A program made the position numbers and the translations under genes. The notes below the pieces were generated by a model. That model made no database searches, had not been told where the DNA came from, and saw only the letters and a list, made by a program, of their open reading frames with translations. This document shows positions 1,432 to 64,000 of a stretch of 64,000 bases of DNA, piece by piece. Positions within the stretch are counted from its first letter, which is position 1. Every line of letters begins with the position of its first letter. This DNA comes from Deroplatys truncata. Lineage: Eukaryota; Arthropoda; Insecta; Mantodea; Mantidae. The stretch covers positions 53,194,067 to 53,258,066 of the forward strand of contig CM060983.1 in assembly GCA_030765065.1 (NCBI GenBank), read 5' to 3'.

Positions 1432-4400
1432 CTGTGTTGAAAAAAAAAAAAAAACATATTAGTCATTTAAACAATATATTAAAATAAAAAAAAATTACCA
1501 ATTTCCGGTAATACAGTTACAAAATTACAGTCCCCCAACTGTGCACTAATATGATCATTTGAATATTTTTATAATCAATTCCAAAAGTAACACACTAATC
1601 ATATAGAGGAGAATACATTATGTTATATATAAATTGCAAATACGTATGTGATATTGGAAGGACCATTCTTATTTTAACGTTTTCATGCTCCAATACAGGG
1701 CAATGCCCAACAGAAATCTTCAGATCAATCAGATTTAATCATGCTATTGACTGTTTGTTACAGAATATATAATCATTAGTCGTGGAAAGTGATGCACGGC
1801 AGTTACAAGATAATGGACATCAATTCCTTTAACATAAAAAAAAAGTAGATTAATTATAAATATTTAGATGTAATGCATATGTATTGTTAATAGTACATTA
1901 CAAATACGGGCAAGCAAGGTGTGTGAGGGACAGAAGAGAGGGAAGTATCATTTGCTGTTGCCATGGGAAATACAACTTGAGTGAAAGAATCTAAATCAGA
2001 CAATTAATAGTGAACCAAAGGTATTTTGCTGTTACGGTTATGTGTGAATACTCGTAGATGTACCTAGCTATTATTTTCAAATGGCCATTTGGAGCTTATT
2101 ATTTATTTATTTTTTTAAAGTAGCTTAATGGTTGGTACTATTACTGAAAATAACCATTTTCTCCCACATGTAATGACAAGTATTCATTCTTTGTATTCCC
2201 TTAAAGCATCCAGGAAATTTTTGAAAGGATTTACTCATTTTTATTCACTTTATTCAAGAAATGTGTTGAATGCATATTGTTCTGTAAATAATATGTCATC
2301 ACAAAATTTCAAATGAGGCAGTCTCACTGTTCTATGGAAACACTCACCAGGTTCTGGAAAGTCCTCAGGATGAAGCTGTAGATAGTGCCTCAGAACAGCA
2401 TCTCGCTCTGCCAAATATGAATCACGATATCTATCCAAGTAATATCCAGCAAGAGTTGCCAAACCTACTGCTGTAATGTGAAACTGGATACCTGGAATAA
2501 TAGATATTTTAGTTTAATTACACTTTTAAACTGCAGAGGTACCACTACTTCAATTATACTTTTTTTTTGCTTCAGAATAGCTCGTGAAAAATGCTCTGAG
2601 GTGAAAACCCTAAGGCACAACTCACAAAGAAAATTAAGCATTAACATTACGACATAAAACTTAAAGACATAAACGTAATGCAAATCTAGTCATTCACGTC
2701 AACAAATGATAACAGCCAATCGCAACAGTGTTAAACAGCTGAGCTAATATGGCAACCTGCAAAGCAAACACTGACAAAAGAGGTTATGTTCATGTGTCAA
2801 TATGAGCAAGAACTAGCCAACTGGTTAAAGGACGTTAAACTCACAAAAAAGCATCATCTATCATCACAGTTTGTTTTGGTATGATTTTTATACAGGTTTA
2901 TTCAAAAAGAAGGAATAGACTTTAAATATTTAATTCTAATGAACACAATAGATGGCAACACATGCACTACATCAGTGAATAGAGAAAAGCTCAAAATTTT
3001 ATTTTGTGTGTTCAAAATGTGCACCATTTGTTATGCAAGGACGACCAGTGCTTTTCCATTTGCATACGCAACCATCTTCTACGAATTTATTGTATCAATT
3101 GTAAATTTTTTATGATGAGACGGCTTATTGTTGAACTTACAACGAAATGCAAGCTGCAATGAAACAATGGATTCACTCTTTGGATAATGCAGCACATAAA
3201 ATGACTTTTCCTGTGACGTTGCCATTTTCTCGTAAACAAACACAGTGCCACTGTAGGCACTGAATGGAACCAATACATGGGGCTTAAAACTTTGAACTTT
3301 CCTCTATTCAATGATGTGTCGTACGTGTTGCTATCTATTGTTGTTCATTAAAAATGCATATTTAAAAATCTGTTCCTTCTTTTTGAATAACCCTGTAGAT
3401 ACCACAGTGATTCCTGGCACATGATATTACACATAAATTGTGTTAGCGAGTCAACACAAGGCAACAGGAAATCTAATGGGAGATGGCAGAAAGATCACGT
3501 GATGAGAATCACTCGACGACTGTCTAGTTTCTTAACTCTGACAAAAACATAAACATGAAAAAAGCAAGCCTCTAAGTTTATGTTTAATTCTATGTTTACT
3601 TCAATGTTTGTGCAATTCATTGTGAATGGTTCCATTATAACACATATCATATAGCTTTTAGGTTTACATTATGCTTATGTTTAAGGGGGTTATGCGTGAA
3701 ATTTCTATTTTGCACAATTTTAAAACTACATACTTAATTTTTTGTACACATACTTGGGGTGTTATGTAAACTATTTGGCAGCGCTTCATTTTTGTATTTC
3801 AATTAGGTTTTTAATTACTGAAAATTTTCTTTCAAAAAATTTGCAAACTTCAAAATGAAGTTCACTGCGCACTTTATTGAAAAAAGTTTGATTTTTTTTT
3901 TTACGAAACCAGGAGCTATTTAGAAAAACTTGGCACACAGGTTTTGTAATATCTTAACTGTAAAGGAAATAAAACATATGATCTTCACAAAATTTCAAAA
4001 TATTTGCAATCACCACATACGTTTTATTTTTACTTTCTCTACTACGTATAGTAAGTAGGGGAAGTATTGCATTCCACCCAAAAATTCAATACCGAGATTT
4101 CACCGAAATATATTTTGAGACCCCCTGAATCAAAAAAAAAAAAGCATTTTTGGAAACATGTACATGTGTGTGTCTGTGAACAGCATAACTCAGAAATGAA
4201 CAGTCGGATAAACACCAAACTTGGTATTTAGGTTCAGTATCTTCCAGAGATGCGACAGGAAGGTTTTCAAGAAAATCCCCCCACCCCAGATTACCCTTTA
4301 CATGGAACATTTTTCAAAAATTTTAATTTTCTCAAAAATGGCTCTTAACGATTTTGATTAAAATATCATATGTTTAAGATATTTTCATGACAAATAAAAT

Positions 4401-7117
4401 GTATATCTTGAATTTTCTGGAATGTCTCCAAAAGTATTCTTCATTGTGAACAAATTTTGCATAACTGGTAAACCATAAGAGATAGACAAAATTTTACTAC
4501 ACAAAAAATGTAGTACACATTAAAATACACAATTTATGTCATATACATTTTTTTTGTTGAGTGAACCATTTTCGAGATATTGCTTGTTATTCCCTTAAAT
4601 ATTTCAATACTTATTTTCTCAAATGGGAATTCGTTATTCATTTTTTTGTCTTGGATATGCAAAGAGTATTAATCTGTGGCAAAGGGAATGGTGCTGCACC
4701 TAGCAACCAGCTATTCTGAGATATGTATGTGCTTAAAGGCTACTGTATTTCTATATTGCCCTTGTAAATATATATTCCCCTTACATCTACAAGAAAATTA
4801 GCAATAAGATAGAGTCTGCAAATGTTTATCTCGATTAACATGAAGTAGATGGAGAATAAGCATTTGTAAAAATAGTTTGTACAAGAGTAGAGAAAGTCAT
4901 GTGAGTGTAACACATCAGATTTTTTTTGTCTTGGTTATGCAAAGAGAATGATGCTGCACATAGCAACCAGCTATTAAGAGGTATGTCTATGCTTAAAGGC
5001 TACTGTATTTCTATATTGCCCTTGCAAATACAAAACGAGGGGAACATAGTACGCCTTAAGCGATAATCAAATATTTTTAGAACTGGTCGCTATGTGTAAA
5101 ATGTAATTCTCTTTGCATGGCAAAAGATAGTTTCTGCAAATGTTTATCTTGATTAATATGAAATAGATGGAGAATAAGAGTTGTAAAAATAGTTTGTACA
5201 AGAGTAGAGAAAGTCATGTGAGTTTAACACATCAAAATTTTTATCTAAAAAAGTACTAAATTAATCCTAAATCCCATGCATCAGTTTTTTTGCCATGCTT
5301 TATAGAATGTACAGTAATACTTTCAGCCTAGCATCGAATTTGTGGATGTAATTTTGTTCTAAATGGATAAAAGTGTAGCAAAAATTAAAGGGAAGAAAAA
5401 TGGGTTTAAAAGTTTGCGTGCAGTTAACCAGAAATGATGATTTACAGACCTTCCTAGAAGTGTCCAGCTTAGACGTGTAAGTCATACTCTTTCTTCATTA
5501 CAAGCACTATAAATCAGTTATGGCATAAGCCAAGCCTTTCAATGCCAAGTCCTACAAACACTTTTGATTACAGTCATTGACCAATGATGACAGTAAAGTG
5601 GCGTCCACCAATATATATTTACATTCTTCATTATTTACAACAGGTACATGTTCATAAATATCCCCCAGCTGTTTCTGCCTTAAATTTTTCTTTTTGTACA
5701 CCACATTCTTGTTCATCTAATCTTTGATCACTGCTATTATTTACATTATTTACACTTGTTTATGGCTCATGTATACGAAACATATAATTTGGTGTTACAC
5801 AATAACTATTGGCAGAGCTGCTGTTATAATCGGCACAACAGTTCTAGACACGTGAAAATCTTAATGAGAGCTATGATGCGAGTTGCTTACCAGATCAGGT
5901 GGTGACCGGTCGTCTGCATGCTGCAGGAGTGCGTGGGACAGTCATCGTCAAATATCCACACCGGTTATGCACTGCGTTGCACTGATAAACTTAGTTATAT
6001 ACAGTATATTAAAATCCACGCTGTAAAAAGTGCTTAATCTAAAAAACGCTGTCAATCATTGCCTCCAATTCTTCCACATCTAACAACCCTTCCTCTTCTG
6101 CAGAATCACTCACATTATTGCCGTCATCACTGCTGTCACTACTTTCTGCACCATTATCCTGGATGTGAATTATTTTTATTTGATTTTCTGCAATTCCGTA
6201 TTTTTCGGAATAATGATTCTTAATTTATTCAGCATGTCGCCATACATTTTCCCATTCTGACCTTCCAATTTCAGCAAATTGCTGGCGTTATAACTGCTCC
6301 ACATATTTTAATTTAAAAGTGATATTTCTGCATGCCACCCATTTTTTGATATCAGCCCAGATTAATTCGATTGGGTTTAGATCTGGGCGATACGATGACA
6401 GTCTAAGTACATTATGGCGATGTTGTATTACTATCTGGTCAAGTATGTATGACTTCTGAAGCTGTTTGTTGGCTTTAATTAAGTTATATAGCTTTGTTTT
6501 ACTCATGCTTTCTTCTAAAGCTTTATTATGTCTAAGTAACCAAGCTCTCATTTCTTCTTTCAAGGAAGTTGAGGTAGGTGGTTTGTGAATTTGAGTGTTG
6601 ACGCATTGTGAAGCATTGTCGATGACCAGAACAGACCCAGCAGGCATATTAGGTATCAACATGGCGTTGATTCACTTCATGTAATTTTCTGTATTCATTT
6701 CTTGATGAAAATCTCCTGTTGTTTGTTGCGACTTGTAAAAGAAGGGCATTTGGAACGAAGCCGATCTTTCCAACAGCATGAACGATAATAAGTATTTGCC
6801 CTTTGGCAACAGGTGCCTGCAAACCTAATTCGCTATCGTCACTCCAACTTTTAGATGCTGTATGACTCATCTTCATACATTATAGTATTTTTCTGAAATT
6901 TGTAGCACCACCTTGAAAATTGATGCTGATATAAGTACATATAAAATTAGTCATTTGGAAAGGTAGAATCAGACTGAAAAATTAAATGCCATAGCCGGGA
7001 TTTGAACCACAGATCTTAGGTTTTCCGTGCCATTGCTCTAACTGACTAAGCTATCATGGCAACATTTACTTTTTATTTTTATTTCTATTTTTTATGTTAT
7101 TATTATTATTATTATTA

Positions 7118-16100: not shown

Positions 16101-19100
16101 AGAGCGCTTTTGAGGTTAAGAACAAGGTACCTACACATATAAATATACATGAGTGTTAAGAAAATAAAAGGCAATTCTTCTTCACTTTCACACATTTCCC
16201 ACACATTGTGTGAGGAATTGACTGCACGCATGTTACTATTTTGTACCCATCCGTGAATATGGTGAACTTTTCCGAAATCAGAAAGGGTATTTCTCTATCA
16301 ACACGCAAGTAATCTGCGGTGCAAAGTGAAGATTAGAAACATTGTTTCCAGAATTTTAAGCTGCTCTTCAGTATGTTTCTCGTCGCTAGAATTATTAAAC
16401 TCGTCAATCACGACTTTCCAGCATCTTTATAACACGTTTGGCTGTTTTGCATTACTTGGGTCCTCATTGAAAACGTTAATAAATGTAACCTCCTGTGAAT
16501 CAGGAACCTAAGCTTATATAAAACCAAACCCTAACCTAACCTTCTGTAAATCAGAAATGTAAAAAAAAAAAAACTAATGAACCTAAAATAAAAAGTAATA
16601 AGGAACGCACGTTGCGAGTGTTGGGGGTATCTCACTGGCTTTGAAGACCAACGTAATCCAGGTTATCACACGTTTTTTACACTCATATTGTTTAAATGGA
16701 TTTTCTTTATTTCTACCAACACACATTTATCTCTTTCGCTGACATTTCTCCCCTTTTCTTATCGCACATAACCTTATTCATGATTGCATCAAGTAAATCG
16801 CGCAAACAAAACAATACCTTCAGGAGTAATAAGCTCTTACTTCCGTAGTCGTAACTAAAAGAGTAAATTGTAATTGCGCTCTCCAACATTACTTTCGGGG
16901 TAAATTGCTCCCGTAGTAACCTACTTCCATAGTGGGGACTTCTTTAGTAAACGTTACTTCTGAAGCAATTTACTCCAACATGGTGCACACCACCCATAGT
17001 GCATGTTACTGTCAGTCATGAGTAGGGTTAGGATTTTTATGATAGGGCATATATTTTTTGGTAGGACTGACATGCTCCTTAAATACATATAAATGCTTCT
17101 GATGAAACAGCGAAATGAATTAACCTAGTTTGTTAAGTCATATTTTTGCATATATGGCCATTTCTCTCTGATAGAGCATATTTTAGTAAGTAAATGGTCA
17201 TATTCGTAATATTTTCACTCTTTCAAGAAGAAAAGAACTTTCTCATGCAATTTATTTATTACGTGTTACATTTCCCAGAATTGCGCACCTCATTTTGTTT
17301 CCTGGAAAATGGCAAGTATCTACATTCCTTCCCTGTTTCCTTTGAATTCACAATATGGACTTCACCCTTACGCATCAGTGAGTTTGTGTAAGCTATTGTT
17401 ACTCTATGAACAGGTATCGGATTAAGTCATTCTGGACTCTGGACTGCAGACAAGTGTCTAATTCACTCATTGTGTTATTCAGTCTCATTGAAGTCGTAAG
17501 CGTGTGCAGTACAGTTCAGAAAAAATGCCTAAAGTGAAGCAAAATGTTCAAGTAAAACTAAAAAAGTGTGTGTCTCAATAAAGTATTTTCAAGTGATGGT
17601 AAAATACTCTATTGTAAACTGTGCGACGTAAGAGTAACTGCGGAGAAGTCATTTAATGTTCAGCAGCATGTGGCAACAGATAAACACAAACGTGGAGTAC
17701 AACGGATTGAAAATGAAGAAACACTACAGCAAATGCTCCTAGGGGAATCTCGCCAATCTTATTCACCATTCTGCGAAGAACTTTGTACAGCTTTCCTTTG
17801 TGCTGATATTCCCTTAAGTAAACTAAACCATCCAAAATTTTGTGAATTCTTAGAAAAATACACAGGCAAACCTCTTCCTGATTCTTCCACATTAAGAAAG
17901 AACATTGTCAGCCGAAGCTACGAAAAAACAATACAACAAATCAGACAACAGCTCGTAAATAAAAAAATTTGGTTATCAATTGATGAAACTACAGACTCTA
18001 TGGTAAGATATATTGCAAATGTCATTGTGGGAACTTTGAAAGAAGATGGTCCAGGCGAAAAGTTTCTAATAAACTGTGAACATTTAGAAAAAGTAAATTT
18101 TTCCACCATTTCTAAGTTGTTCGACAGATCTATGGGTGCCATATGGCCCGAAGGTGTTAAGCATGACAATGTACTTCTCTTTGTAACGGATGCTGCACCT
18201 TATATGGTGAAAGCTGCCGATTCTCTAAAGGCATTGTACAATATGGTGCATGTGACTTGTTTAGCTCATGCCTTGCACCGAGTTGCAGAGGAGATTCGTA
18301 GTAAATTCAGTGACGTTGACAAATTTATTGGATGTGTCAAAAAGATATTTTTGAAAGCCCCTTCACGTGTTGTAGCATTTAAGTTGTTAGCTCCAGACAT
18401 TCCCTTGCCACCATCTCCCATTTTGACAAGATGGAGGTCCTGGGTTGATGCCTGCAACTATTACTGCCAGAACTTCAACGTTGTGAAAAGCATCATTGAT
18501 TCATTCGATAGCAGTGAAGCTACTTCAATTGGACTAGCTCAAGAATTAATGTCTAATGGTGAAATTTCAGGCAAACTTTCATACATAAAATCAAATTTTG
18601 GATATATTCCAGCTGTCATAACTGATTTGGAGGGATCAGAAGTGCCACTGGTGAAGCAGATAAAACAAGTGAAAAAATTGTGAATAAATTAGAGGGTGTT
18701 TGTGGTAAAGTGGGAAAAGAAGTGTCAAAGAAAATGGAAAAGGTGTTAGAAAAAAACGAAGGGTATCACACTGTGTTCCATTTTAATGATTTTGTTGGGT
18801 GAAAAGTTCTCTCTTAATCATTCAGATTTAGATTCAAATGATATTGTTCATTTTAAATATGCTCCTCTTGTGTCAGCTGAAGTAGAAAGGAGCTTTTCGA
18901 ATTACAAGGCTTTGTTGGCTGACAATAGGAAATCTTTTTCATTTGAAAATTTGCACAAGGTCTTCATTGTGTATTGCAACTCAGAGCTTATATGAAGTAG
19001 AATGAGGATGTAAAACGCACATAGGTTCCTATAATGTTAATAAAAATCATACTGGAATGTCAAATTGCATAGTTTAGCTTGCTTCTCATGTGCATTTTAT

Positions 19101-22100
19101 TCTCAAATAAATAGTTCATTATCAAAATTGACTTACTAATTTATTTTACAGTAGAAATTTTACCTCATTTTAATATTATTAGGTCATATTTATTATGTTA
19201 TTGTGCATATTTTGGTAAATGTTTGGTCATAACAGTATATTCTTTTGTGCATATTATGGTGATTTTTAGGACATAAATATCCTAGCCCTAGTCATGAGTA
19301 AGTGATGCAGGAGTCATGGAGGAAAAAACCCTCAGTGTAATACACAGTGTGCAGAGCATGCATATGCTTGAACCATGACCTCACCATAAAATGACTACAC
19401 TGTACTATAAATAGCACGGGTGATGGAAGACTTCAGTATTTGGAGATTAAAAGAAAATGCTCACTATGCTGATATTCATGTTTTTAAATAGGGCAAATCT
19501 GCTCTTAGAGCTCTTTGTGAAAAATGGTTATAAAAGCAATAGGAAAGTGAATAAATTAACTTAAGAGTGAGTTTAGAAGTGGATGTGATCTCTTCAATAG
19601 CTGGTGCCAAACTGGCCTCCCCCTTTTAGGCGTTTTACTTTTATAGGCAATTCACATTATGAACAAAACAAACTTAGCCATTTTATCCCTAAATCACATG
19701 CAAAGTGGGAACTGCGAACCTAAATGAAAAGGTGAAATCCGCTAAATATGTGATCTGTGGTTGTTACTAGAATTTCTTCTTCTTCTCCTTCGTTTAGTGT
19801 TGCCGCTGACAAAAACGCAATGCATTCATAGTAAGAAAGACTATCCACCAAAATTGTAATTTTTTTATTCATTTTGTGAAAGTTTGTTATATTAATATGT
19901 TACTTCTAATAAATAAAGAAGTTCCTTTACTGTAACAGTGGTAGATAGTTAACGCAAGCTTACATAAAGAGAAACCTAACCAAAGGCTAACTTTCCGTGA
20001 ATTCAGAAACGTAAGCTTATATAAAAAAAAAAACTAAACCTAAACGCCCAACCTAAACTCGCTTCGCTCGAGTGCTTTGATGTAACCACTGATAACTAAT
20101 TAAAATAAGGTTATATATATACATATATACAAAAAAAACTAACCTCCCGTGAATCAGAAACCTAAACTTCGCTCGCTTGCTTTGATGTAACCACTGGTAA
20201 CAAATTAAAACAAGGTTTTTTTATATATATAAATATAAAAGTAAATCAGAAACCTAAGCTTATATAAAAAACCTGATGTGTTACACTCACACGACTTTCT
20301 CTACTCTTGTACAAAGTATTTTTACAAACGCTTATTCTCCATCTAGTTCATGTTAATCGGGATAAACATTTGCAAACTCTATCTTATTGCTAATTTTCTT
20401 GTAGATGTAGGGAAAAATATATTTACAAGGGCAATATAGAAAACAATAGCCTTTAAGCACATACATATCTCTTAATAGCTGGTTGCTAGATGCAGCACCA
20501 TTCCCTTTGCCACAGATTATAACTCTTTGCATATCCAAGACAAAAAAATGAATAACAAATTCCCATTTGAGAAAATAAGTATTGAAATATTTAAGGGAAT
20601 AACAAGCAATATCTCGAAAATGGTTCACTCAACAAAAAAAATGTATATGACATAAATTGTGTATTTTAACGCGATCTACATTTTTTGTGTAGTAAAATTT
20701 TGTCTATCTCTTATGGTTTACCAGTTATGCAAAAGTCGTTCACAATAAAGAATACTTTTGGAGACATTCCCAGAAAATTCAAGATATACATTTTATTTGT
20801 CCTAAAAATATCTTAAACATATGATATTTTAATCAAAATCGTTAAGAGCCATTTTTGAGAAAATTAAAATTTTCAAAAAATCTTCCTTGTAAAGGGTAGT
20901 CTGGGGTGGGGGGATTTTCTTGAAAACCTTCGTGTCGCATCCTTGGAAGATACTGAACCCAAATACCAAGTTTGGTGCTTATCCGACTGTTCGTTTCTGA
21001 GTTATGCTGTTCACAGACACACACACATGGACATGTTTCCAAAAATGCTTTTTTTGGATTCAGGGGGTCTCAAAACATGTATTTCCGGTGAAATCTCGAT
21101 ATCAAAATTTTGGGTGGAATACAATACTTCCCCTACTTACTATACGTAGTAGAGAAAGTAAAAAGAAACTAAACCTAACCTAAATTCTCGTGAATCAGAA
21201 ACCTAAACTTAGGAACGCAACTGCTACGCTCCTCTCCTTCTAAAAAACATCCCTCGGCTATGCTTTGAGGCTGAGGGCCCTCAATCCCTCGGCTACGCCT
21301 TGAGGCTGAGTATCTTACCGGCTCTGGCAGCAGTAGCTATTCATATGTTGCCATCATTGCGTTAAAGCTAGCGTATGACGCAGAGTGACATCTGTTGAGC
21401 TAGCGTACGACATAGAGTGACATCTGTTGGACATATAACACATCATTTTCATCACTAAGGAAGAGGATTAAAAGCAGATTGTCGTTATGTCAAATTTCTA
21501 TATAGTTATGGAAAAACTGAGAATTTAAATAGCGTACTCCTCTGGTTGAACAATCCATAACATCTCAAAACATGGCTTTTGGAAGTTAGCCTGTGATGGC
21601 TCTGGAATTTTGAAGGAAGGACAAAATTTGTCAAATTTGTTCTCATGTCATTCTTTCAGAATTGGTGCTTTAATATGGAGTTTAAATACTATATATAGCT
21701 AATCATGCTTAATAATGGAGAAAGTGTCACCTGTAACTGTCTCAGTTACCACCAATACTTGAACAATTTCTCACTAGTAGTTTTTAAAACATCAAACATC
21801 CAATTATATGATCCCAACATTAAAATATTATCTTGGAGTGTTTTATTTGAAGTAATTTCTCTCTGGCTCTAAAATAAACATTGCTGAAGTTTCACTGAAG
21901 CTATGTAGGTTAGAGGCTATTCCTTATTTTTACATATGCTAAAATGTAGAGCACTAAGATAACTGAAGGGTATACGTGCAGAAGGGAGCAAGGAACATTT
22001 AATAAATTTTATTGGGGAGCTTTTTTAATAAACAAAATAGCCTTTTCTTACAAAGTGCAATGATTTGGGTAAGTTGCTCTTACGGGGTCCCCGACAGTGA

Positions 22101-24189: not shown

Positions 24190-27100
24190 GTGTTTTCATG
24201 GCCAGATTCCCATTAGCCACCATCTATTGTATGCAATGTGATTTCCACGGGCTTTAACTATGGCTCTGCAGCGCAATTTTAATTGAAGAAGGCCTGCGTC
24301 TAAGAACAGGAAGGGTGATGTTAGCCCACTCCTCCTGGCAGACTTTCCAGAGTCCTTCAATAGTGTTGGGATGCCGAGAAGCAAAGCGCTGTTTCAGCAG
24401 ACCAAATCCGCAAAAATGAATTGGCAAGACATCTGGTGACTTCACAGGGATCCTCTTAAATGGTATCACGTTGACACCCATTTCCATAGCTTTCCGGTGG
24501 CAGTAATGCTGAGAAGACCGAGACGTGTGACTGGAGACTTTATCCATGTGGATCCAAACATTTGGGACATCCTCACCAGACAACCGAGGAATCTTCATAA
24601 AAAAATCTGATGTGTTACACTCTCATGACTTTCTCTACTCTTGTACAAACTATTTTTACAAACGCTTATTCTCCATATGCTTCATGTTAATGGAGATATC
24701 GAGATGTCAATCTTATTGATAATTTTCTTGTAGATGCAAGGGGAATATGGTAAGTTTTAAGCGATAGTCAAATATTTTAACGCTGGTTGCTATGTGGCGC
24801 ATCCCATTCTCTTTGCATGTCCAGGACATAAAAAAATCTGATGTGTTACACTCACATGACTTTCTCTACTCTTGTACAAACTATTTTTACAAACGCTTAT
24901 TCTCCATATGCTTCATGTTAATGGAGATATCGAGATGACAATCTTATTGATAATGTTCTTGTACATGCAAGGGGAACATGGTAGGTTATAAGCGATAGTC
25001 AAATATTTTAACGCTGGTTGCTATGTGGCGCATTCCATTCTCTTTGCATGTCCAGGACATAAAAAAAATATGTGTTACACTCACATGACTTTCTCTACTC
25101 TTTTACAAACTATTTTTACAAACTCTTATTCTTCATCTATTTCATATTAATCGAGATAAATATTTGCAGAAACGATCTTTTGACATGCAAAGAAAATTAC
25201 ATTTTAAACATGGTGACTAGTTCTAAGAATATTTGACTATGACTTAAGGCCTACTAAGTTCTCCTTGTTTTGTATTTGCAAGGGCAATACAGAAATACAG
25301 TAGCCTTTAAGCATCGACATATATCTTAATAGCTGGTTGCTAGGTGCAGCACCATTCCCTTTGCCACAGATTATAACTCTTTGCATATCCAAGATAAAAA
25401 AATCTGATGTGTTACACTCACATGACTTTCTCTACTCTTGTACAATCTATTTTTACAAACGCCTATTCTCCATATGCTTCATATTAATCGAGATATCGAG
25501 ATGTCAATTTTATTTGTAATTTTCTTGTAGATGCAAGGGGAATATGGTAGCTTTTAAGCGATAGTCAAATATTATATCGCTGGTTGCTATGTGGCGCATT
25601 CCATTCTCTTTGCATGTCCAGGACATAAAAAAATGAATAACGAATTTGAGAAAAAGTATAAGTATTGGAAAATTTAAGGAAATAACAAGCAATATCTCGA
25701 AAACGGTTCACTCAACAAAAAAAATGTATATGATATAAGTTGTGTATTTTAACGCGATCTACATTTTTGGTGTAGTAAAATTTTGTCTATCTCTTATGGT
25801 TTACCAGTTATGCAAAAGTCGTTCATAATGAAGAATACTTTTGGAGACATTCCCAGAAATTTCGAGATATACATTTCATTTCTCATGACATTATCTTAAA
25901 CATATGATATTTTCATCAAAATCGTTAGAGCCATTTTTGAGAAAATTAAAATTTTCGAAAAATGTTCCATGTAAAGGATAGTCTGGGGTGGGGGGATTTT
26001 CTTGAAAATCTTCGTGTCGCATCTCTGGAAGATACTGAACGTAAATACCAAGTTTGGCGTTTATCCGACTGTTAGTTTTTGAGTTATGCTGTTCACAGAC
26101 ACACAGACACACACACACACACAGACACACACACACACACACAGACACACACACGGACATGTTTCCAAAAATGCTTTTTTTGGATTCAGGAGGTCTCAAA
26201 ACATGTATTTCCGGTGAAATCTCGGTATCGAATTTTTGGGTGGAATGCAATACTTCCCCTACTTACTATACGTAGTAGAGAAAGTAAAAATGAATAACGA
26301 ATTCCCATTTGAAAATAAGTACTGAAAAATTTAAGGGAATAACAAGCAATATCTCGAAAACGGTTCACTCAACAAAAGAAATGTATATGACTTAAGTTGT
26401 GTATTTTAACGCGATCTACATTTTTTGTGTAGTAAAATTTTGTCTATCTCTTATGGTTTACCAGTTATGCAAAAGTTGTTCATAATGAAGAATACTTTTG
26501 GAGACATTCCCAGAAATTTCGAGATATACATTTCATTTCTCATGACATTATCTTAAACATATGATATTTACATCAAAATCGTTAGAGCCATTTTTGAGAA
26601 AATTAAAATTTTCGAAAAATGTTCCATGTAAAGGATAGTCTGGGGTGGGGGGATTTTCTTGAAAACCTTCGTGTGGCATCTCTGGAAGATACTGAACCTA
26701 AATACCAAGTTTGGTCCTTATCCGATTGTTCGTTTTTGAGTTATGCTGTTCACAGACACACACACAGACACACACACACACACAGACAGACACACACACG
26801 GACATGTTTCCAAAAATGCTTTTTTTTGGATTCAGGAGGTCTCAAAACGTGTATTTCCGGTGAAATCTCGGTATCGAATTTTTGGGTGGAATGCAATACT
26901 TCCCCTACTTACTATACGTAGTAGAGAAAGTAAAAATGAATAACGAATTTGAGAAAAAGTATAAGTATTGAAAAATTTAAGGGAATAACAAGCAATATCT
27001 CGCAAACGGTTCACTCAACAAAAGAAATGTATATGATATAAATTGTGTATTTTAACGCGATCTACGTTTTTTGTGTAGTAAAATTTTGTCTATCTCTTAT

Positions 27101-28213
27101 GGTTTACCAGTTATGAAAAAGTCGTTCATAATGAAGAATACTTTTGGAGACATTCCCAGAAAATTCTAGATATACATTTTATTTGTCATGACAATATCTT
27201 AAACATATGATATTTTAATCAAAATCGTTAGAGCCGTTTTTGAGAAAATTAAAATTTTCGAAAAATGTTCCATGTAAAGTGTAGTCTGGGGTGGGGGGAT
27301 TTTCTTGAAAACCTTCGTGTCGCATCTCTGGAAGATACTGAACCTAAATACCAAGTTTGGTGTTTATCCGACTGTTCGTTTTTGAGTTATGCTGTTCACA
27401 GACACACAGACACAGACAGACACACACACGGACATGTTTCCAAAAATGCTTTTTTTTGGATTCAGTGAGTCTCAGAACATATATTTCCGGTGAAATCTCG
27501 GTATCGAAATTTTGGGTGGAATACAATACTTCCCCTACTTACTATACGTAGTAGGGAAAGTAAAAATTGGGTCCATATAATTCCTTTGATAATAGGTGCA
27601 TTAATATTTACATTGTTGGCAACTCTGTGAATGCCGAGTTTCCCCCAAGAGCAATAACCTGCAACCACCATGAACTCCTTGGAAAACTTTTCTTTGTTCT
27701 CCCGGATAGGCCCACTTTTCTTTAGTGTCATCTAGATAAACCCATGCTTCATCTAAAGAAACCACCCATTGCCACTTTCCACCTGCGAGGTGGTGTTCAT
27801 AGAGCATTCTCTGATGTGCCGCTCTTTCAAGGCATGTCCACGTGCTTTATGGCGCCGTTCTAGACACAAATTGCTGTGCATTATCCGATAGACGATCCCT
27901 TTGGATGTTCCAATGCGGCTAGAAATGCTTCTTGGTTGGTGGGTTTTCTTGAATCGCTGTTGCACTCATCGTGGCTACTACTGCTTTAGGTCGTGATGGT
28001 TGCTTTTTTTAGCCTTTTTCTTGCTAGTTTTTTCGTACACTGGGCCTCAAGTGGGAATCAATTTTTATACAGCTATGTTATACGCCCCACACACGACTTA
28101 CTTATGGCAAGACCTTTTGGTTTGCACCTTTCCACTATCATTGAAAGGCTGTAACCGGCATGGGAAAGCCCAACAATGTACCCCTGCCACAAGTCAGCGA
28201 TTGTTGAAGCCAT
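24190..28213 (-). pseudogene. mariner/Tc1 transposase, interrupted
   Basis: From 28213 the minus strand reads MASTIADLWQGYIVGLSHAG then SMIVERCKP (helix-turn-helix). RSISSRIGTSKGIVYRIMHS follows, then WQWVVSLDEAWVYLDDTKEK with the first catalytic aspartate, GKLGIHRV and APIIKGIIWTQF up to about 27570. The frame resumes past the insertion at 24598 with MKIPRLSGEDVPNVWIHMDK (second aspartate in the HMD block) and SSHTSR. PFKRIPVKSPDVLPIHFCGF gives the third acidic region, followed by LWKVCQEEWANI and LKLRCRAIVKARGNHI near 24250. Small frameshifts exist, but conservation of both halves suggests the element was fairly young when the repeat block landed in it. Confidence 0.88.
24599..27566 (+). 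repeat. Composite a-a-a-a-b-b-b array of the modular repeat
   Basis: Four copies of module a (24599-24830, 24831-25061, 25062-25391 long variant, 25392-25626) are followed by three of module b (25627-26288, 26289-26934, 26935-27566). All are in the plus orientation and joined at A-tracts. Module a starts TCTGATGTGTTACACTCACA. Module b starts ATGAATAACGAATT and ends TACGTAGTAGAGAAAGTA. Each b carries CA/GACA repeats of different length. The array interrupts a mariner transposase within an A-run. Confidence 0.92.
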
Positions 28214-35880: not shown

Positions 35881-35958
35881 GGCTGTTGGTTAAGGTAAGG
35901 CGGAGTTATGGAGGAGAAATTATTCGAGTAACAACAATGACACGGGAAAGTGACAGTG

Positions 35959-36849
35959 AAAAAATCTGATGTGTTACACTCACATGACTTTCTCTACTCT
36001 TGTACAATCTATTTTTACAAACGCCTATTCTCCATATGCTTTATGTTAATCGAGATATCGAGATGTCAATCTTATTGCTAATTTTCTTGTAGATGCAAGG
36101 GGAATATGGTAGCTTTTAAGCGATGGTCAATATTTTAACGCTGGTTGCTATGTGTCGAATTCCATTCTCTTTGCAAGTCCAGGACATAAAAAAATGAATA
36201 ACGAATTTGAGAAAAAGTATAAGTATTGGAAAATTTAAGGGAATAACAAGCAATATCTCGAAAACGGTTCACTCAACAAAAGAAATGTATATAACATAAG
36301 TTGTGTATTTTAACGAGATCAACATTTTTTGTGTAGTAAAATTTTGTCTATCTCTTATGGTTTACCAGTTATGCAAAAGTCGTTCACAATGAAGAATACT
36401 TTTGGAGACATTCCCAGAAAATTCGAGATATACATTTCATTTCTCATGGCATTATCTTAAACATATGATATTTTAAACAAAATCGTTAGAGCCATTTTTG
36501 AGAAAATTAAAATTTTCGAAAAATGTTCCATGTAAAGGGTAGTCTGGGGTGGGGGGATTTTCCTGAAAACCTTCGTGTCGCATCTCTGGAAGATACTGAA
36601 CCTAAATACCAAGTTTGGTGTTTATCCGACTGTTCGTTTTTGAGTTATGCTGTTCACACACACACAGACACACACACAGACACACACACACACAGACACA
36701 CAGACACACACACGGACATGTTTCCAAAAATGCTTTTTTTGGATTCAGGAGGTCTCAAAACATGTATTTCCGGTGAAATCTCGGTATCGAATTTTTGGGT
36801 GGAATGCAATACTTCCCCTACTTACTATACGTAGTAGAGAAAGTAAAAA
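35959..36849 (+). repeat. Dispersed modular repeat, near-complete copy
   Basis: One module a (from TCTGATGTGTTACACTCACA) and one module b (to GTAGTAGAGAAAGTA), A-tracts at both ends, and a long CA/GACA stretch at 36655-36716. Confidence 0.9.
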
Positions 36850-40599: not shown

Positions 40600-41930
40600 A
40601 GTTTGGTGTTCTGTGTGTTTGCTGGTATTTCCATATTTTCATTTCCCACCACAATACATAGATAGCTTCACTATCTGTGGATTACTAACGTTTTAATACA
40701 AGTTTGAGGTTTGGTTAGGTTTCTACATTTTAAGCACGTGACTTCATTTCCCATCAATACAGAGATAACAGACTATGGATTAATGATTTTACAACATGTT
40801 TGAGGTTAGATTAGGTTTTCACATTTTATTTATATTTTAAGCATGCTGCTTCATTGCCCACCACAATACAGAGATAGCGGCTTCAGTGTCCGTGGATTAA
40901 TGATGATGTTACAAGTTTTAGGTTAGGTTTCCACCTTTTATTTACATTTTAAGCGTGTGACTTAATTTCCCATCACAATACAGAGATAGCAGCTTCAGTG
41001 CCTGTGGATTAATGATGATTTTACAAGTTTGAAGTTAGGCTAGGTTTTCACATTTTATTTACATTTTAAGCACGCGACTCCATTTCCCACCACAATAGAG
41101 AGATAGCAGCTTCATTGTCCGTGGATTAATAATGATTTTACAACAAGTTTTAGGTTAGGTTTTCACATTTTATTTGCATTTTAAGCACGTGGCTTCATTT
41201 CCCACCACAATAGAGAGACAGTAGCTTCAGTGCCTGTGGATTAATGATGATTTTAGAACAAGTTTGAGGTTAGTTTAGGTTTCCACATTTTATTTGCATT
41301 TTAAGCACGTAGCTTCATTTCCACCACAATAGAGATAGCAGGCTTCAGTGCCCGTGGATTAATGCTCATTTTAGAACAAGTTTGAGGTTAGTTTAGGCTT
41401 CCACATTTTATTTGCATTTTAAGCAAGCGACTTCATTTCCCACCACAATAGAGAGATAGCAGCTTCAGTGCCTGTGGATTAATGATGATTTTAGAACAAG
41501 TTAGAGGTTAGGTTTCCACATTTTATTTGCATTTTAAGCATATGACTTCATTTCCCACCACAATAGAAAGATAGCAGGCTTCAGTGCCTGTGGATTAATG
41601 ATGATTTTAGAACAGGTTTGAGGTTAGTCTAGGTTTCCACATTTGATTTGCATTTTAAGCACGTGGCTTCATTTCCCACCACAATAGAGAGATAGCAGGC
41701 TTCAGTGCCTGTGGATTAATGCTCATTTTAGAACTAGTTTGAGGTTAGTTTAGGTTTCCACATTCTATTTGCATTTTAAGCACGCGACTTCATTTCCCAC
41801 CACAATAGAGAGATAGCAGGTTCAGTGCCTGTGGATTAATGGTGATTTTAGAACAAGTTTGAGGTTCGATTATGTTTGCACATTTATTTACATTTTAAGC
41901 ATGTGACTGATGTTGATTGTGAAATTCACC
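40600..41930. repeat. Tandem array, about 105-122 bp monomer, about 11 units
   Basis: Repeated blocks are TTCATTTCCCACCACAATAG, TTCAGTGCCTGTGGATTAAT, GGTTAGGTTTCCACATTTTA and TTTGCATTTTAAGCACG. Unit lengths vary by small indels and the first units are most diverged. No coding frame persists. Confidence 0.92.
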
Positions 41931-42761: not shown

Positions 42762-43477
42762 TGTAAATGCCAGAGTGATTGTAGTGTAAATAAGCATTAT
42801 TGTATGACATTGATTTGAGATGTTTGTTAATTATAAGCATTGTTAGGAAATAAGTTTACACGGCCTCACTGAAACTGACAATAGGAGCGGGTAACAATGA
42901 GCGAGGGGGGAGTTGTTTATCAATTAGAAGAGACAAACAAATGACGTCAGATTGGCGCGCTTTTCTTAGAAATGGCGGGAATATTTTCCCTAGAGCATAT
43001 GTTTTAGTAATTTTGATTGGATATAAAAATAGACGCTAATGTTGGCGCGTTTTATTAACCAATAGCAGCTCGGTTATAATCTTTAGGCATATCGAGGTGT
43101 GGGAGTATAAAAAAGCTAAAGCCAGAAGCAAGTATCGCCCAGTTCAACAAAATCATCCACCCGTTACACGTCGCCGAGTCCAACAGAATCATTCAGAAGT
43201 TAAACGTCGCTTAGTTCATCAGAATCGTTCGCGAGTTACACGTCGCAATTCTACAGAATCTCTCGCGTCTTAAAGTTTGTTATAAATGTGAAACACGCGA
43301 ATTAATAATGTGCAGTAAATAAGTGATTATAGTGATATTAGAAAATATAACAGTTTCAGTCTGGCGTGTATCAAGAGTCAATATGTGAACTTAATTAGTT
43401 GTGACGGTAATAACAGCGTAAAAACAAATTCTTTTATCAGTGTTATCTGTGAGTAACAAATCCTTTCCGTTTACACA
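42762..43477 (+). repeat. LTR-like sequence, copy 1
   Basis: It begins TGTAAATGCCAGAG and ends CGTTTACACA (TG..CA). A TATA box (TATAAAAAA at 43106) is followed by four loosely repeated units of about 38 bp containing TACACGTCGC and CAGAATC. An inverted homologue of similar length is at 57374-58098. No target duplication could be assigned because neither copy has a partner LTR in the window. Confidence 0.7.
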
Positions 43478-44663: not shown

Positions 44664-45570
44664 AAAAAAATCTGATGTGTTACACTCACATGACTTTCTC
44701 TACTCTTGTACAAACTATTTATACAAACGCTTATTCTCCATATGCTTCATGTTAATCGAGATAAACATTTGCAGACTCTATCTTATTGCTAATTTTCTTG
44801 TAGATGTAAGAGGAATATATATTTACAAGGGCAATATACAAATACAGTAGCCTTTAAGCACATACATATCTCTTAATAACTGGTTGCTAGGTGCAGCACC
44901 ATTCGCTTTGCCACAGATTAATATTCTTTGCATATCGAAGACAAAAAAATGAATATCGAATTCCCATTTGAGAAAAGTATTGAAAAATTTAAGGGAATAA
45001 CAAGTAATATCTCGAAAATGGTTCACTCAACAAAAAAAATGTATATGACATAAATTGTGTATTTTAACGCGATCTACATTTTTTGTGTAGTAAAATTTTG
45101 TCTATCTCTTATGGTTTACCAGTTATGCAAAGGTCGTTCACAATAAAGAATACTTTTGGAGACATTCCCAGGAAATTCAATATATACATTTTATTTGTCA
45201 TAAAAATGTCTTAAACATATGATATTTTAATCAAAATCGTTAGAGCCAATTTTGAGAAAATTAAAATTTTCGAAAAATCTTCCATGTAAAGGGTACTCTG
45301 GAGTGGGGGGATTTTCTTGAAAACCTTCGTGTCGCATCCTTGGAAGATACTGAACCTAAATACCAAGTTTGGTGTTTATCCGACTATTCGTTTCTGAGTT
45401 ATGCTGTTCACAGACAGACACACAGACACACACACGGACATGTTTCCAAAAATGCCTTTTTTGGATTCAGGGGATCTCAAAACATATATTTCCGGTGAAA
45501 TCTCGGTATCGAATTTTTGGGTGGAATGCAATACTTCCCCTACTTACTATACGTAGTAGAGAAAGTAAAA
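44664..45570 (+). repeat. Dispersed modular repeat, near-complete copy
   Basis: Module a (long variant with GCTGGTTGCTAGGTGCAGCA) plus module b with a short GACACACA stretch, A-tracts at both ends. It abuts the 3' end of the Harbinger pseudogene. Confidence 0.9.
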
Positions 45571-45589
45571 AAGCATAGAGGAAGGAAAC

Positions 45590-48513: not shown

Positions 48514-49455
48514 AAAAAAATCTAATGTGTTACACTCACATGACTTTCTCTACTCTTGTATAAACTATTTTTCTACATCTATTTCATATTAAGCGAGATA
48601 AACATTTGCAGAAACGATCTTTTGACATGGAGAATTACATTTTACACATAGCGAACAGTTCTAAAAATATTTGAACTATCGCTTAAGGCCTACTATGTTT
48701 CCCTTGTTTTATATTTGCAAGGGCAATATAGAAATACAGTACCCTTTAAGCATAGACATATATCTTAATAGCTGGTTGCTAGGTGCAGCACCATTCTATT
48801 CGCCACAGATTAATACTCTTTGCATATCCAAGACAAAAAAATGAATAACGAATTCGCATTTGAGAAAATAAGTATTGAAAAATTCAAGGGAATAACAAGC
48901 AATATCTCGAAAATGGTTCACTCAAGAAAAAAAATGTATATGACATAAATTGTGTATTTTAACGTGATCTACATTTGTTGTGTAGTAAAAGTTTGTCTAT
49001 CTCTTATGGTTTACCCGTTATGCAAAAGTCGTTCACAATGAAGAATACTTTTGGAGACATTCCCAGAAAATTCAAGATATACATTTTATTTGTCATGAAA
49101 ATATCTTAAACATATGATATTTTAATCAAAATCATTAGAGCCATTTTTTAGAAAATTAAAATTTTCGAAAAATGTTCCATGTAAAGGGTAGTCTGGGGTG
49201 GGGGGGATTTTCTTGAAAACCTTCGTGTCGCATCTCTGGAAGACACTGAACCTAAATACCAAGTTTAGTGTTTATCCGACTGTTCGTTTCTGAGTTATGC
49301 TGTTCACAGACACACACACGGACATGTTTCCAAAAATGTTTTTTTTTTTGGATTCAGGGGGTCTCAAAACATATATTTTCGGTGAAATCTCGGTATCGAA
49401 TTTTTGGGTGGAATACAATACTTCGCTTACTTACTATACGTAGTAGAGAAAGTAA
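48514..49455 (+). repeat. Dispersed modular repeat, near-complete copy
   Basis: Module a (long variant) and module b. The CA stretch is reduced to GACACACACACGG. A-tracts flank it. Confidence 0.9.
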
Positions 49456-50109
49456 AAAAGTCAGTTACGACCTTGACGGCAAACATTTATGTTTTATCAG
49501 TGTTTATTTCTTCTGTAATTCTATATAGTTTTACACTAAACATATATTTTATTGCTTTATATTTAAGTAATCATGAATCCTACCTCTAGGTAAGGTTTTC
49601 AAGCCTTGAGCCCGGCAAGGAAGCTGCATTAATTCACCAAAACAGTTTGTGCTGATATAACAGTAAATTCTAATTTTCCTAATTGGTTTCCAGCATAATT
49701 TTTTTGTAATACATGAATCTTAAACAAACTTGGTATGCATATTTTAGAATATTTATCTACAAAACTATTTCCATAATTGTAGTTAGTAAACTGAGGAGAG
49801 TAAGTGTTTTCCATTAAGAATTTGTGAAAAAAGGCATTTTATGGAAACATACATTCATTTAAAATACTAATATGTATTAGGTATATGATATTAGTTTAAG
49901 TTGTTCTAGATTTATTTTATATTTTCCAAAAAAAGAAAACACCTTTATGTTTATTGACAAACACGCTATTTTGGAAATAGTGGCTCACAGTAAAGTGAAA
50001 GGTAGCCATTTTTAATATTAAATTAAGTTAATTAAAGATTCATTAAATAGCTTCAATTTTTGTTTCCATATAGATTACACCCTAGCCTCAAAGTGTATAA
50101 AATTTGTTA
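49456..50109. other. AT-rich sequence, nothing recognised
   Basis: No gene or element seen. Confidence 0.35.
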
Positions 50110-50564: not shown

Positions 50565-51368
50565 CAAATGATTCTTACGAAAGTTTATTTTCCTATCTTC
50601 TTCATTTTAATCGAGATAAAACTTTCCTGAAATAGCTGTATTACACATTTCGTAATAAATACAAAGGGAATAGTGATTTAAGAACTAGAAACTACGTACT
50701 GACCTTAAAATTCGATGCTCTTTGCGTGCAATCGCGAGGAACAACCGAATATCTAAAGGACTTGAAAAGAATGACAAAGTATTGAACAATTCGATCAATT
50801 AATAACAAATATCTCAGAAATGTTTGATGCCACAAAAGGTTATTTGAAATAAATTGTGTGAATTAAAGAGATCTACATTTTTGTAGAGTACGTTTTCGTC
50901 ATCAATTAACATTTACCAGTTATACAAGATTATTCAAAATTCCATCCGAATGGAGAGGACTTCACAGGCTATTCCCAGAAAATTGAAGATATACATTTTA
51001 TTTGTAATATAAATATCTTTAATATATACTGTTTTAATCAAAATCGTTAGGAACATTGTTTAGAAAATCAAAATTTTCAAAAAATCTTCCATGTAAAGGC
51101 TAGTTTGGGCAGGGGGATTCCGTTGAAAATCTTCGTGTCGCATCTTTAGAAGGTACTGAACCCAAATACCAAGTTTGGTATCCTACTTTACGTTTTTGAG
51201 TTATGCTGCTCACACACACAGACACACATGGGCCTTTCTCTAAAATGCTTTTTTATTTTTTAATTTAGGAGACCTCAAAGCATGTATTTCCGGAGAAATC
51301 TCGGTATCGAATTTTTGGGTGGAATACAATACTTCCCCACCTACTATGTACGTAGAGAGGAAGTAAAA
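50565..51368 (+). repeat. Old dispersed modular repeat copy
   Basis: A diverged but full-length-order copy with TTTTAATCGAGATAAA, AATAACAAATATCTCAG and GAGATCTACATTTTTG. It continues with CACACACACAGACACACA, GAATTTTTGGGTGGAATAC and AGGAAGTAAAAAC. Confidence 0.75.
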
Positions 51369-51506
51369 ACATACTAGGGTGTAAGTAACTGTTGCAAGTC
51401 AACAGTTAAGTAAGTGTATGAGTATTGATGCATAACCGTAGAACAAGATACCCTTGGTCCACTGGTTTTGATTGACAGGTTCCTCTACTTCGTCGTGATT
51501 CTTTCT

Positions 51507-51849: not shown

Positions 51850-52553
51850 TAAAAAATCTGATGTGTTACACTCACATGACGTTCTCTACTCTTGTACAAA
51901 CTATTTTTACAAACGCTTATTCTCCATATGCTTCATGTTATTCGAGATATCGAGATGTTAATCTTATTGCTAATTTTCTTGTAGATGCAAGGGGAATTGG
52001 TAGGCTTTAAGCTATAGTCAAATATTTTAAGAGCTGGTTGCTATGTGGAGTATTCCATTCTCTTTGCATTACCAGGACAAAAAAAAATGAATAACGAATT
52101 TCCATTTGAGAAAAAGTATAAGTATCGGAAAATTTAAGGGAATAACAAGCAATATCTGGAAAATGGTTCACTCAACAAAATAATGTATATGGCATAAATT
52201 GTGTATTTTAACACGATCTATATTTTTTGTGTAGTAAAATTTTGTCTATCTCTTATGGTTTATCAGTTATGCAAAAGTCGTTCACAATGAAGAATACTTT
52301 TGGAGACATTCCCAGAAAATTCGAGATAAACATTTCATTTGTCATGAAAATATGTTAAACATATGATATTTTAATGAAAATTGTTAGAGCCATTTTTGAG
52401 AAAATTAAAATTTTCGAAAAATGTTCCATGTAAAGGGTAATCTGGGGTGGGGAGATTTTCTTGGAAACCTTCGTGTCGCATCTGTAGAAGATACTGAACC
52501 TAAATACCAAGTTTGGTGTTTATCCGACTGTTCGTTTCTGAGTTATGCTGTTC

Positions 52554-52594
<41 letters not shown>

Positions 52595-52719
52595 CATGTT
52601 TCCAAAAATGCTTTTTTTATTCAGGGGACCTCAAAACATATATTTCCGGTGAAATCTCGGTATAGAATTTTTGGGTGGAATGCAATACTTCCCTTACTAT
52701 ACGTAGTAGAGAAAGTAAA
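51850..52719 (+). repeat. Dispersed modular repeat, near-complete copy
   Basis: Module a (short variant) and module b with an uninterrupted CA run at 52555-52592. A-tract at the left. It directly precedes the Harbinger fragment. Confidence 0.9.
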
Positions 52720-55005: not shown

Positions 55006-55049
55006 GCGTCGCAGAATGTGCGTTGCTAGGAAAACCCGCCTTAAGCTGG

Positions 55050-55250
55050 AGGCACCTAACGGGCGCTGCCCGTTACCTCCGAATATAAAACGATGAGGGA
55101 ACCTACAGGTTTTACTGTGGATTCCGAACCAGTCACATGAGTTAGACTGGAGAGGGTAGACTTAAAATTCGCCACTCCAGACCCGGAAATCGAACTATGG
55201 ATCCTCGGTACGAAAGCCGCAACCTGACGCAGCCACACTACGCCCTCCAA
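55050..55250 (-). repeat. tRNA-derived SINE
   Basis: The minus strand has an A-box-like GGGCGTAGTGTGGCTGCG and a B-box ATAGTTCGATTTCCGGG, followed by a body with GTGACTGGTTCGGAATCC and CCTGTAGGTTCCCTC. It lies right beside the LINE and the right TIR-like end. Confidence 0.65.
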
Positions 55251-63828: not shown

Positions 63829-64000
63829 CACCGAGTAGGTAGAGACGGTATTGCATTCCACCCAAAAATTTGATACCGAGATTTCATAAAATGCATGATT
63901 TGAGGCCCCGGGAATGAAAACATTTTTAGAAAAAGGCCCGTGTAGGTATGTTTGTGTGTATCTGTGAAATAACTCAAAAACGAAAAGTCGGATACATACC
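63829..64000 (-). repeat. Dispersed modular repeat, copy cut by the window end
   Basis: TATTGCATTCCACCCAAAAA, TTGATACCGAGATTTCA and AAAACGAAAAGTCGGATAC mark the start of a reversed, diverged copy. Confidence 0.8.

What the first reader, a model, noticed from the sequence alone, without database searches (positions are those of the whole stretch)
24599..27566. Undescribed modular repeat arranged a-a-a-a-b-b-b
Two sequence modules are joined at A-tracts and multiply independently: single a+b copies elsewhere, an extra a at 4921-5234, and this 4a+3b composite. Independent module copy number is unusual for a DNA transposon and suggests template switching, unequal crossing-over or rolling-circle/array capture.
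Basis: seen in the sequence. Interest (0 to 1): 0.8.

Follow-up and report, generated by a model that had tools for sequence, protein, structure and literature searches.

The report
Jumping DNA nested inside itself
The repeat is an array that was most likely built when a very common "rolling-circle" jumping element, which prefers runs of A or T, inserted into the A-run in the middle of older copies of itself; it offers a testable route from single transposons to tandem repeats.

Summary
The array is real: 24599-27566 holds seven modules, a-a-a-a-b-b-b. Read on the minus strand, one b plus one a is a complete non-autonomous Helentron (HINE): b is the 5' module, a the 3' module. A partner exists: one ~9.8-kb Helentron with a 2,324-aa open frame shares its first ~860 nt (90% to the longest HINE type) and 37 of its last 39 nt. 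The composite sits in an A-tract of another repeat; 11 of 11 paralogues are empty, with no duplication beyond As. No lone module was seen among 101 b and 128 a. Best-supported origin: nested self-insertion of whole a+b units into the a|b A-tract of older copies. In mixed balanced arrays the outer b is old-like in 10 of 10 and the inner b in 0 of 10 (one weaker measure is uninformative). Of 25 insertion ends inside modules, 18 lie in A/T tracts, all 18 with the predicted orientation. But 40 of 58 multi-module blocks, this one included, have unequal a and b, so a second, unidentified process acts. New variant of a known kind.

The parts
24599..24829 (-). a1, short 3' module (aS, 231 bp) with its own subTIR; outermost 3' end of the array in element orientation
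24830..25060 (-). a2, short 3' module (aS)
25061..25394 (-). a3, long 3' module (aL, 333 bp); nearest relative in the sample is the aL of L004 (0.9% divergence)
25395..25626 (-). a4, short 3' module (aS), innermost a
25627..26283 (-). b1, 5' module, innermost b
26284..26929 (-). b2, 5' module
26930..27566 (-). b3, 5' module; outermost 5' end of the array in element orientation
27550..27561 (-). 5' subterminal inverted repeat in b3 (AGTAGGGAAAGT on +; the others, AGTAGAGAAAGT, at 26274-26285 and 26920-26931)
24628..24639 (-). 3' subterminal inverted repeat in a1 (ACTTTCTCTACT on +; also 24859-24870, 25088-25099, 25425-25436)
27533..27556 (-). short inverted repeat CCCTACT...AGTAGGG partly inside the 5' subTIR, as described for DINE-1
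   Evidence: sequence; DINE-1 layout in PMC4067079, passages
24841..24857 (-). 3' terminal stem-loop ATGTG-TTACACT-CACAT in a2 (5-bp stem) next to the terminal T-run; a1 has one mismatch in the stem
   Evidence: sequence; the same hairpin of the unit at 35959 and of the autonomous 3' end folded
26094..26154 (.). CA microsatellite inside b1 (others at 26751-26804 and 27397-27428)
25627..25633 (.). A7 tract at the a|b junction: the proposed internal target of nested units
24254..24598 (-). left part of the host repeat (open frame; reads like a DDE transposase by recall, no Pfam match for this piece)
27567..27900 (-). right part of the same host repeat; one frame stays open across the joined flanks
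35958..36848 (-). single unit of the young (aS+b) type
44664..45571 (-). single unit of the intermediate (aI+b) type
48514..49458 (-). single unit of the long (aL+b) type, of three types compared the closest to the autonomous Helentron
51850..52719 (-). single unit, aS+b
20265..21164 (-). single unit, aI+b
4027..5243 (+). composite with two a and one b (aL-aI-b)

Best explanation
It is a family of non-autonomous Helentrons (HINE/DINE-1-like rolling-circle transposons) whose arrays arise by nested self-insertion. In element orientation (minus strand) one unit is 5'-b'-T-tract-a'-3'. The family inserts into A/T tracts without a target duplication, with the orientation set by which strand carries the As. 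The A7 tract between its own two modules is such a target, so a whole young unit can insert there in an older one and give b'b'a'a' (a a b b on +), with the innermost pair youngest; repeats of this, and insertion in other tracts, give longer orders. SHOWN in the sample: Helentron-type ends, an A-tract empty site, one partner with matching ends, no lone modules, agreement of outer a with outer b in mixed balanced arrays, tract targeting with strand-set orientation. INFERRED: that transposition is rolling-circle; that the partner's protein moves these units. UNEXPLAINED in detail: unequal numbers of a and b (40 of 58 multi-module blocks), which need a second process such as transposition from alternative ends of a composite, deletion, or exchange between neighbours; this composite has 4 a and 3 b.
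For: (1) Ends: 12-bp subterminal inverted repeat in five of six a+b units of the window, 9 bp in the sixth; stem-loop and T-run at the a' end. (2) Empty sites: in 11 of 11 other fetched paralogues of the host repeat the flanks are adjacent at an A4-A6 tract followed by TT. (3) Partner: 152 Helitron_like_N matches (150 of 291 candidates scored), 18 of those listed in frames above 2,000 aa; the one copy examined, C9 ~66063253-66073045, starts with a b' (87% over 630 nt), then the inner part of a' (85%), and ends with 37 of 39 nt identical to the a' end; its 5' part is 90% identical to an aL+b unit over 863 nt. (4) Lone modules: 0 of 101 b, 0 of 128 a. (5) Nesting: in 10 balanced arrays with an old-type outer a and aS inner a, the outer b is old-like in 10 and the inner b in 0 (mean distance to single-unit references); in S-only arrays with two or more b the outermost is old-like in 3 of 19 and the inner in 2 of 19; leave-one-out, 4 of 5 I/L references and 9 of 10 S references fall on their own side. 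In 17 balanced arrays outer a and outer b divergence correlate (rho 0.70, p 0.002), outer a and inner b do not (rho -0.15); the outer b is more diverged in 16 of 17 and the outer a in 16 of 17. In arrays with two or more b and both end copies full, the inner b is less diverged in 27 of 31, and in 16 of 20 S-only ones (p 0.008). (6) Targeting: of 25 element ends abutting the inside of another module, 18 lie in A/T tracts of 5 or more (b: 18 of 24, against 13.7% of b positions), and 18 of 18 of these have the same orientation in A-tracts and the opposite in T-tracts (13 separate insertions by my count of the list). (7) Tract length follows the left-hand module: A7 after a (44 of 55 a|a, 30 of 40 a|b), A5 after b (43 of 45 b|b, 7 of 12 b|a).
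Against: Pure nesting predicts equal numbers; 18 of 58 multi-module blocks are balanced, 24 have more a and 16 more b (my sums from the list; some blocks are cut by locus ends and some modules are counted in pieces). The pairing result depends on the measure: with nearest-reference distance and all references it is 8 of 10 inner against 10 of 10 outer old-like, because one aI unit (L004:3773) carries a young b; without that reference it is 0 of 10 against 8 of 10. One of the 10 arrays was added after seeing that its outer a is 15% diverged. Divergence is from the majority sequence, so for aI and aL it measures subtype rather than age. In the 8 S-only balanced arrays the outer-outer correlation is rho 0.63, p 0.09; in S-only arrays the outer a is more diverged in 19 of 28, p 0.10. 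Three b that have only aS beside them fall in the old clade (L069 Sb, both b of C1_23978362 Sbb). Seven of 25 ends are not in tracts. In this composite b2 is not clearly the partner of the aL: its nearest relative is in L002, and the composite with the closest aL (L004) is 4.2% away in b. Loci were chosen by junction pattern or by similarity, not at random; 5 of the 17 balanced arrays came from the search with this composite. The partner's helicase and endonuclease were not examined.
Confidence: 0.8

Rival explanations
1. Local amplification in place: unequal crossing-over or replication slippage between A-tracts copies a and b separately.
For: Four pairs of b in the same array are each other's nearest relatives, three of them 0-0.6% apart (L002, L005, C1_24209622) and one 4.5% (C1_14406182). 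Unequal a and b numbers are common. Regular higher-order arrays exist: 2,481-bp steps at C1:19.82 Mb and about 3,408-bp steps at C1:20-123 kb.
Against: 72 of 80 b in arrays are closer to a copy in another locus, the three b of this composite included; it does not predict old outside and young inside nor insertion inside modules at A/T tracts with strand-set orientation. A test for chimeric b in a-a-b arrays showed no gradient along b.
Confidence: 0.1
2. Template switching during rolling-circle replication at the T-tracts inserts modules from other templates.
For: All four junction types exist and share A-tracts; Helitrons can bypass their 3' end (PMC4778049, passages).
Against: It does not by itself require that an old a pairs with an old b around a young a+b unit, nor opposite orientation in T-tracts.
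Confidence: 0.05
3. Composites are mostly mobile units: arrays with several 5' and 3' ends are copied as such (the FoHeli model), and nesting in place is rare.
For: aL-aI-b occurs at three loci (window 4027-5243, L083, L085) whose b-side flanks have no similarity to each other. Fusarium Helitrons with several 5' ends are reported, with self-insertion proposed (PMC5148889, sections 10 and 16). Unequal numbers follow easily from choice of start and stop.
Against: In aL-aI-b the outer a differs by 9-10% between loci but the inner a by 2.5-3.6% and b by 5-7.5%, and in the LSbb arrays the closest locus differs from module to module: not what one copied unit predicts. It also needs nesting first.
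Confidence: 0.25
4. Assembly artefact or chance similarity.
For: None found.
Against: Tens of thousands of the same junctions, reversed controls 0; clean empty sites; 0 of 20 resampled sequences.
Confidence: 0.01

Closest known systems
HINE / DINE-1 non-autonomous Helentrons (Thomas et al. 2014, PMC4067079; passages and section 6 seen)
   Same: Subterminal inverted repeats of about 12 bp, short inverted repeat nested in the 5' one (DINE-1), stem-loop near the 3' end, T-runs at both ends that vary in number, T-rich target without target modification, microsatellite, autonomous partner with the same ends.
   Different: Here both end modules are repeated, in nested order, at one internal T-tract. 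The 3' subTIR lies about 28 nt from the end, against 38-60 nt given for the mite HINEs, and the subTIR is not itself palindromic.
Cg_HINE elements of the Pacific oyster (PMC7492417; abstract passage and other passages seen)
   Same: HINE made of two end modules; tandem repeats carried between them.
   Different: There satellite-like monomers lie between one left and one right module; here the end modules themselves are the repeats.
FoHeli elements of Fusarium with multiple 5' termini (PMC5148889; passages and sections 10 and 16 seen)
   Same: Several 5' ends in one element; self-insertion proposed as origin.
   Different: Duplicated 5' pieces are typically short (under 200 bp) with a single 3' end; here whole modules of about 650 and 231-333 bp at both ends.
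Helraiser/Helibat (PMC4778049; passages seen)
   Same: 3' hairpin as terminator that can be bypassed; insertions right next to other copies.
   Different: Canonical Helitron with CTAG 3' end; no nested a/b arrays in the passages seen.

Membership tests
Non-autonomous Helentron (HINE) | Subterminal inverted repeats of at least 11 identical bp | tested here: met
   12 bp ACTTTCTCTACT in five of six a+b units (9 bp in the sixth); criterion from PMC4067079
Non-autonomous Helentron (HINE) | Palindrome or stem-loop near the 3' end | tested here: met
   5-bp stem before the terminal T-run, in one HINE and in the autonomous 3' end
Non-autonomous Helentron (HINE) | T-rich target, no target-site duplication | tested here: met
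   11 of 11 empty paralogues; one insertion site examined this way
Non-autonomous Helentron (HINE) | Shares both ends with an autonomous Rep/helicase element | tested here: met
   5' ~860 nt and 37 of 39 nt at the 3' end shared with one copy that carries Helitron_like_N; its helicase part was not read
Non-autonomous Helentron (HINE) | Partner encodes an endonuclease after the helicase | not tested
   That part of the partner's frame was not fetched; the first 957 aa gave DUF6570 and Herpes_teg_N only
DINE-1 of Drosophila | Inverted repeat with its 5' side nested in the 5' subTIR, and a microsatellite | tested here: met
   27533-27556 and CA repeats
DINE-1 of Drosophila | Conserved Drosophila core sequence | not tested
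   No copy of the core was fetched
Canonical Helitron | 5'-TC and CTRR-3' ends, A^T target | tested here: not met
   Ends read TTTTTACTTTC... and ...CATCAGATTTTTTT; the general feature list is recalled, the TC and CTAG ends of Helraiser are
Terminal-inverted-repeat DNA transposon or MITE | Inverted repeats at the very ends and a target duplication | tested here: not met
   Inverted repeats are subterminal, no duplication beyond As; feature list recalled
Satellite DNA | Long homogeneous tandem array of one monomer | tested here: not met
   Seven modules of two kinds; Tandem Repeats Finder (periods up to 500) gives one row of 2.4 copies at period 231 (24596-25158) besides microsatellite rows; regular arrays exist elsewhere

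The most novel reading that the evidence does not exclude
The internal T-tract works as a landing pad for the family's own copies: many new insertions are funnelled to one harmless site, building ordered arrays with several start and stop ends that then move as units and seed tandem satellites. Many of this genome's tandem repeats could then be read as balanced-parenthesis records of transposition order.
Probability: 0.3. Interest if true: 0.68.

Novelty: new variant of a known kind. Interest (0 to 1): 0.5.

Why it matters
How rolling-circle elements acquire tandem repeats and turn into satellite DNA is usually argued from static structures (for example PMC7492417, passages). Here the order and divergence of modules appear to record the steps: an old pair of ends outside, a young pair inside. 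With 21,203 b|b, 8,449 aS|aS and 5,270 aI/aL|a junctions in one genome, nested self-insertion, unequal exchange and multi-ended transposition could be separated statistically. The orientation rule also gives a natural read-out of Helentron target choice.

Tried and rejected
Average-linkage clustering of b copies split off single outliers only and was dropped. The first b tree had name collisions that overwrote some window copies; replace it. A search for diagnostic columns between S and I/L singles found 0 (with the colliding names). Nearest-reference classification with all references was uninformative because one aI unit carries a young b; told above as evidence against. A test of single-strand-annealing origin of a-a-b arrays (rising divergence along b) showed no gradient: quarters 0.066, 0.062, 0.049, 0.052, against 0.046, 0.067, 0.074, 0.051 in I/L singles. 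Five further loci fetched as a held-out test of pairing (L083-L087) turned out to be aL-aI-b twice, aI-aI-b twice and one aI-aS-b whose b is in two pieces, so they could not test outer/inner pairing; in 4 of 4 with aI next to b the b groups with the old references, and the fifth b does not. A blast run printed nothing, probably because of an unsupported scoring choice, and was redone. The first annotation of L002-L008 found nothing because the files were not where the script looked; redone. The host repeat piece gave no Pfam match; 'DDE-type' is recalled. The species was not identified. Papers: six searches; none of the titles, abstract starts or passages seen describes nested end-module arrays at an internal T-tract in a HINE; no paper was read whole.
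Full report
WHAT IS THERE. The window is G000:C9:53194067-53258066 of a 4.29-Gb genome in 818 contigs; the species was not identified. Positions 24599-27566 hold four a modules followed by three b modules, each beginning at an A-tract. Three a are 231 bp (aS), one is 333 bp (aL); other copies in the window have an intermediate form of about 279 bp (aI). In the singles a and b occur once each. Self-alignment against 20 resampled sequences shows that the repeats are not chance.

COUNTS. Whole-genome pattern counts within two mismatches were: b|b 21,203, aS|aS 8,449, aI/aL|a 5,270, b|a 6,580, aS|b 43,297, b end 301,010. The control, the pattern read backwards, was 0 each time. The patterns differ in length and in the subtypes they admit, so ratios between them are rough.

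WHAT IT IS. On the minus strand the unit reads T-run, subTIR ACTTTCTCTACT, an inverted repeat partly inside the subTIR, a microsatellite (all in b'), a T-tract, then a', which ends with the inverted copy of the subTIR, a stem-loop and a T-run. This is the layout given for HINE and DINE-1 (PMC4067079, passages; target section), except that the 3' subTIR is about 28 nt from the end rather than 38-60 nt as in the mite HINEs. The genome has 152 matches to Helitron_like_N (150 of 291 candidates scored), 18 of those listed in frames above 2,000 aa. One copy was examined at both ends with small fetches: it starts with a full b' (87% over 630 nt), followed by the inner part of a' (85%), then a long frame, and it ends with 37 of 39 nt identical to the end of a'. 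Its first ~860 nt are 90% identical to an aL+b unit, 88% to an aI+b unit and 86% to an aS+b unit. So the HINE looks like an internal-deletion derivative, with aL the nearest form. The first 957 residues of the frame match DUF6570 and Herpes_teg_N. A further b' piece (253 nt, cut by the end of the fetched stretch, 97% to the young type) lies directly in front of this copy.

TARGET. The composite interrupts a dispersed repeat with an open frame. Of 12 loci fetched (from 40 scored matches), one is the window itself; in 11 of 11 others the flanks are adjacent, with an A4-A6 tract and TT at the insertion point. There is no duplication beyond As. At its outer ends the composite therefore behaves as one insertion, but this does not tell whether it arrived whole or grew in place.

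NO LONE MODULES SEEN. In the window, 41 merged contigs of chromosome C1 (140 kb) and L002-L008, counting modules at least 90% complete, at least 85% identical to the references and away from locus ends, 0 of 101 b lack an a or b on the a-side and 0 of 128 a lack an a or b on the b-side. The 41 contigs were chosen for an a|a or b|b junction.

NESTING. The 78 blocks parsed include 20 singles and 58 multi-module blocks. In the b tree an old clade (support 0.956, 18 members) holds aI and aL singles together with the last b of LSbb (4 of 5) and ISbb (3 of 3) arrays; the first b of these eight arrays is outside it. Three of its members have only aS beside them, against the simple reading. By mean distance to single-unit references, 10 of 10 outer b and 0 of 10 inner b are old-like in balanced mixed arrays, against 3 of 19 and 2 of 19 in S-only arrays. 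One of the ten (C1_23939704.163) was added after its outer a was seen to be 15% diverged. The other measures, one of them uninformative, are given under evidence against. In 17 balanced arrays outer a and outer b divergence correlate and outer a and inner b do not. Five of the 17 were fetched by similarity to this composite.

INSERTION INSIDE MODULES. Of 25 element ends that abut the inside of another module, 18 are in A/T tracts (within 3 nt), and all 18 obey the rule same orientation in A-tracts, opposite in T-tracts. Four nested insertions were seen with both sides. The seven others lie at or near shorter A or T runs, in the microsatellite, or elsewhere.

THE SECOND PROCESS. Only 18 of 58 multi-module blocks are balanced. 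Four pairs of b are local nearest relatives, so some exchange or duplication between neighbours is likely. aL-aI-b stands at three loci whose b-side flanks are unrelated, so movement with two a ends may occur too, although the outer a is more diverged between those loci than the inner a. One version of the deletion model was tested and found no support. The 4:3 composite of the window needs at least one such step, and its own pairing is not resolved.

VERDICT. A HINE family, a new variant in that its end modules form nested arrays at an internal T-tract. The parts are known; ordered self-nesting at this scale, with pairing of outer modules and the orientation rule, was not seen in the listings and passages.

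Noticed in passing
G000:C1:20305-122596: Thirty-one aS|b junctions at steps of about 3,408 bp near the start of contig C1: a long regular tandem array that contains this element.
   Followed up: no
G000:C1:19824421-19831897 and 76053557-76063895: b|a junctions at steps of 2,481 bp, and at steps of roughly 1.22-1.24 and 1.33-1.37 kb: the element inside higher-order tandem repeats.
   Followed up: no
G000:C9:66063253-66073045 and places listed: Eighteen listed Helitron_like_N matches lie in open frames of 2,108-2,543 aa, which suggests recent activity of autonomous Helentrons.
   Followed up: partly
L089:330-3200: The N-terminal part of the Helentron frame matches Herpes_teg_N (E 1.9e-9), besides DUF6570; a cysteine-protease-type domain by recall.
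   Followed up: no
L002:4076-4690, L003:897-1416, L008:1131-1486; window 50777-51369, 61408-61716, 63808-64000: Older relatives of the b module at about 71-77% identity, so the family has several generations.
   Followed up: no
window 40783-41908: Tandem array of a 121-bp unit (9.6 copies, also a 353-bp period).
   Followed up: no
window 43135-43260 and 57579-57721: Two minisatellites with 36-bp units.
   Followed up: no
window 17562-18683: Open frame of 373 aa with a DUF659 match.
   Followed up: no
window 54073-55161: Reverse transcriptase fragments (RVT_1) on the minus strand.
   Followed up: no
L004:3773-4708: An aI unit that carries a b of the young type: possible exchange between subtypes.
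   Followed up: no
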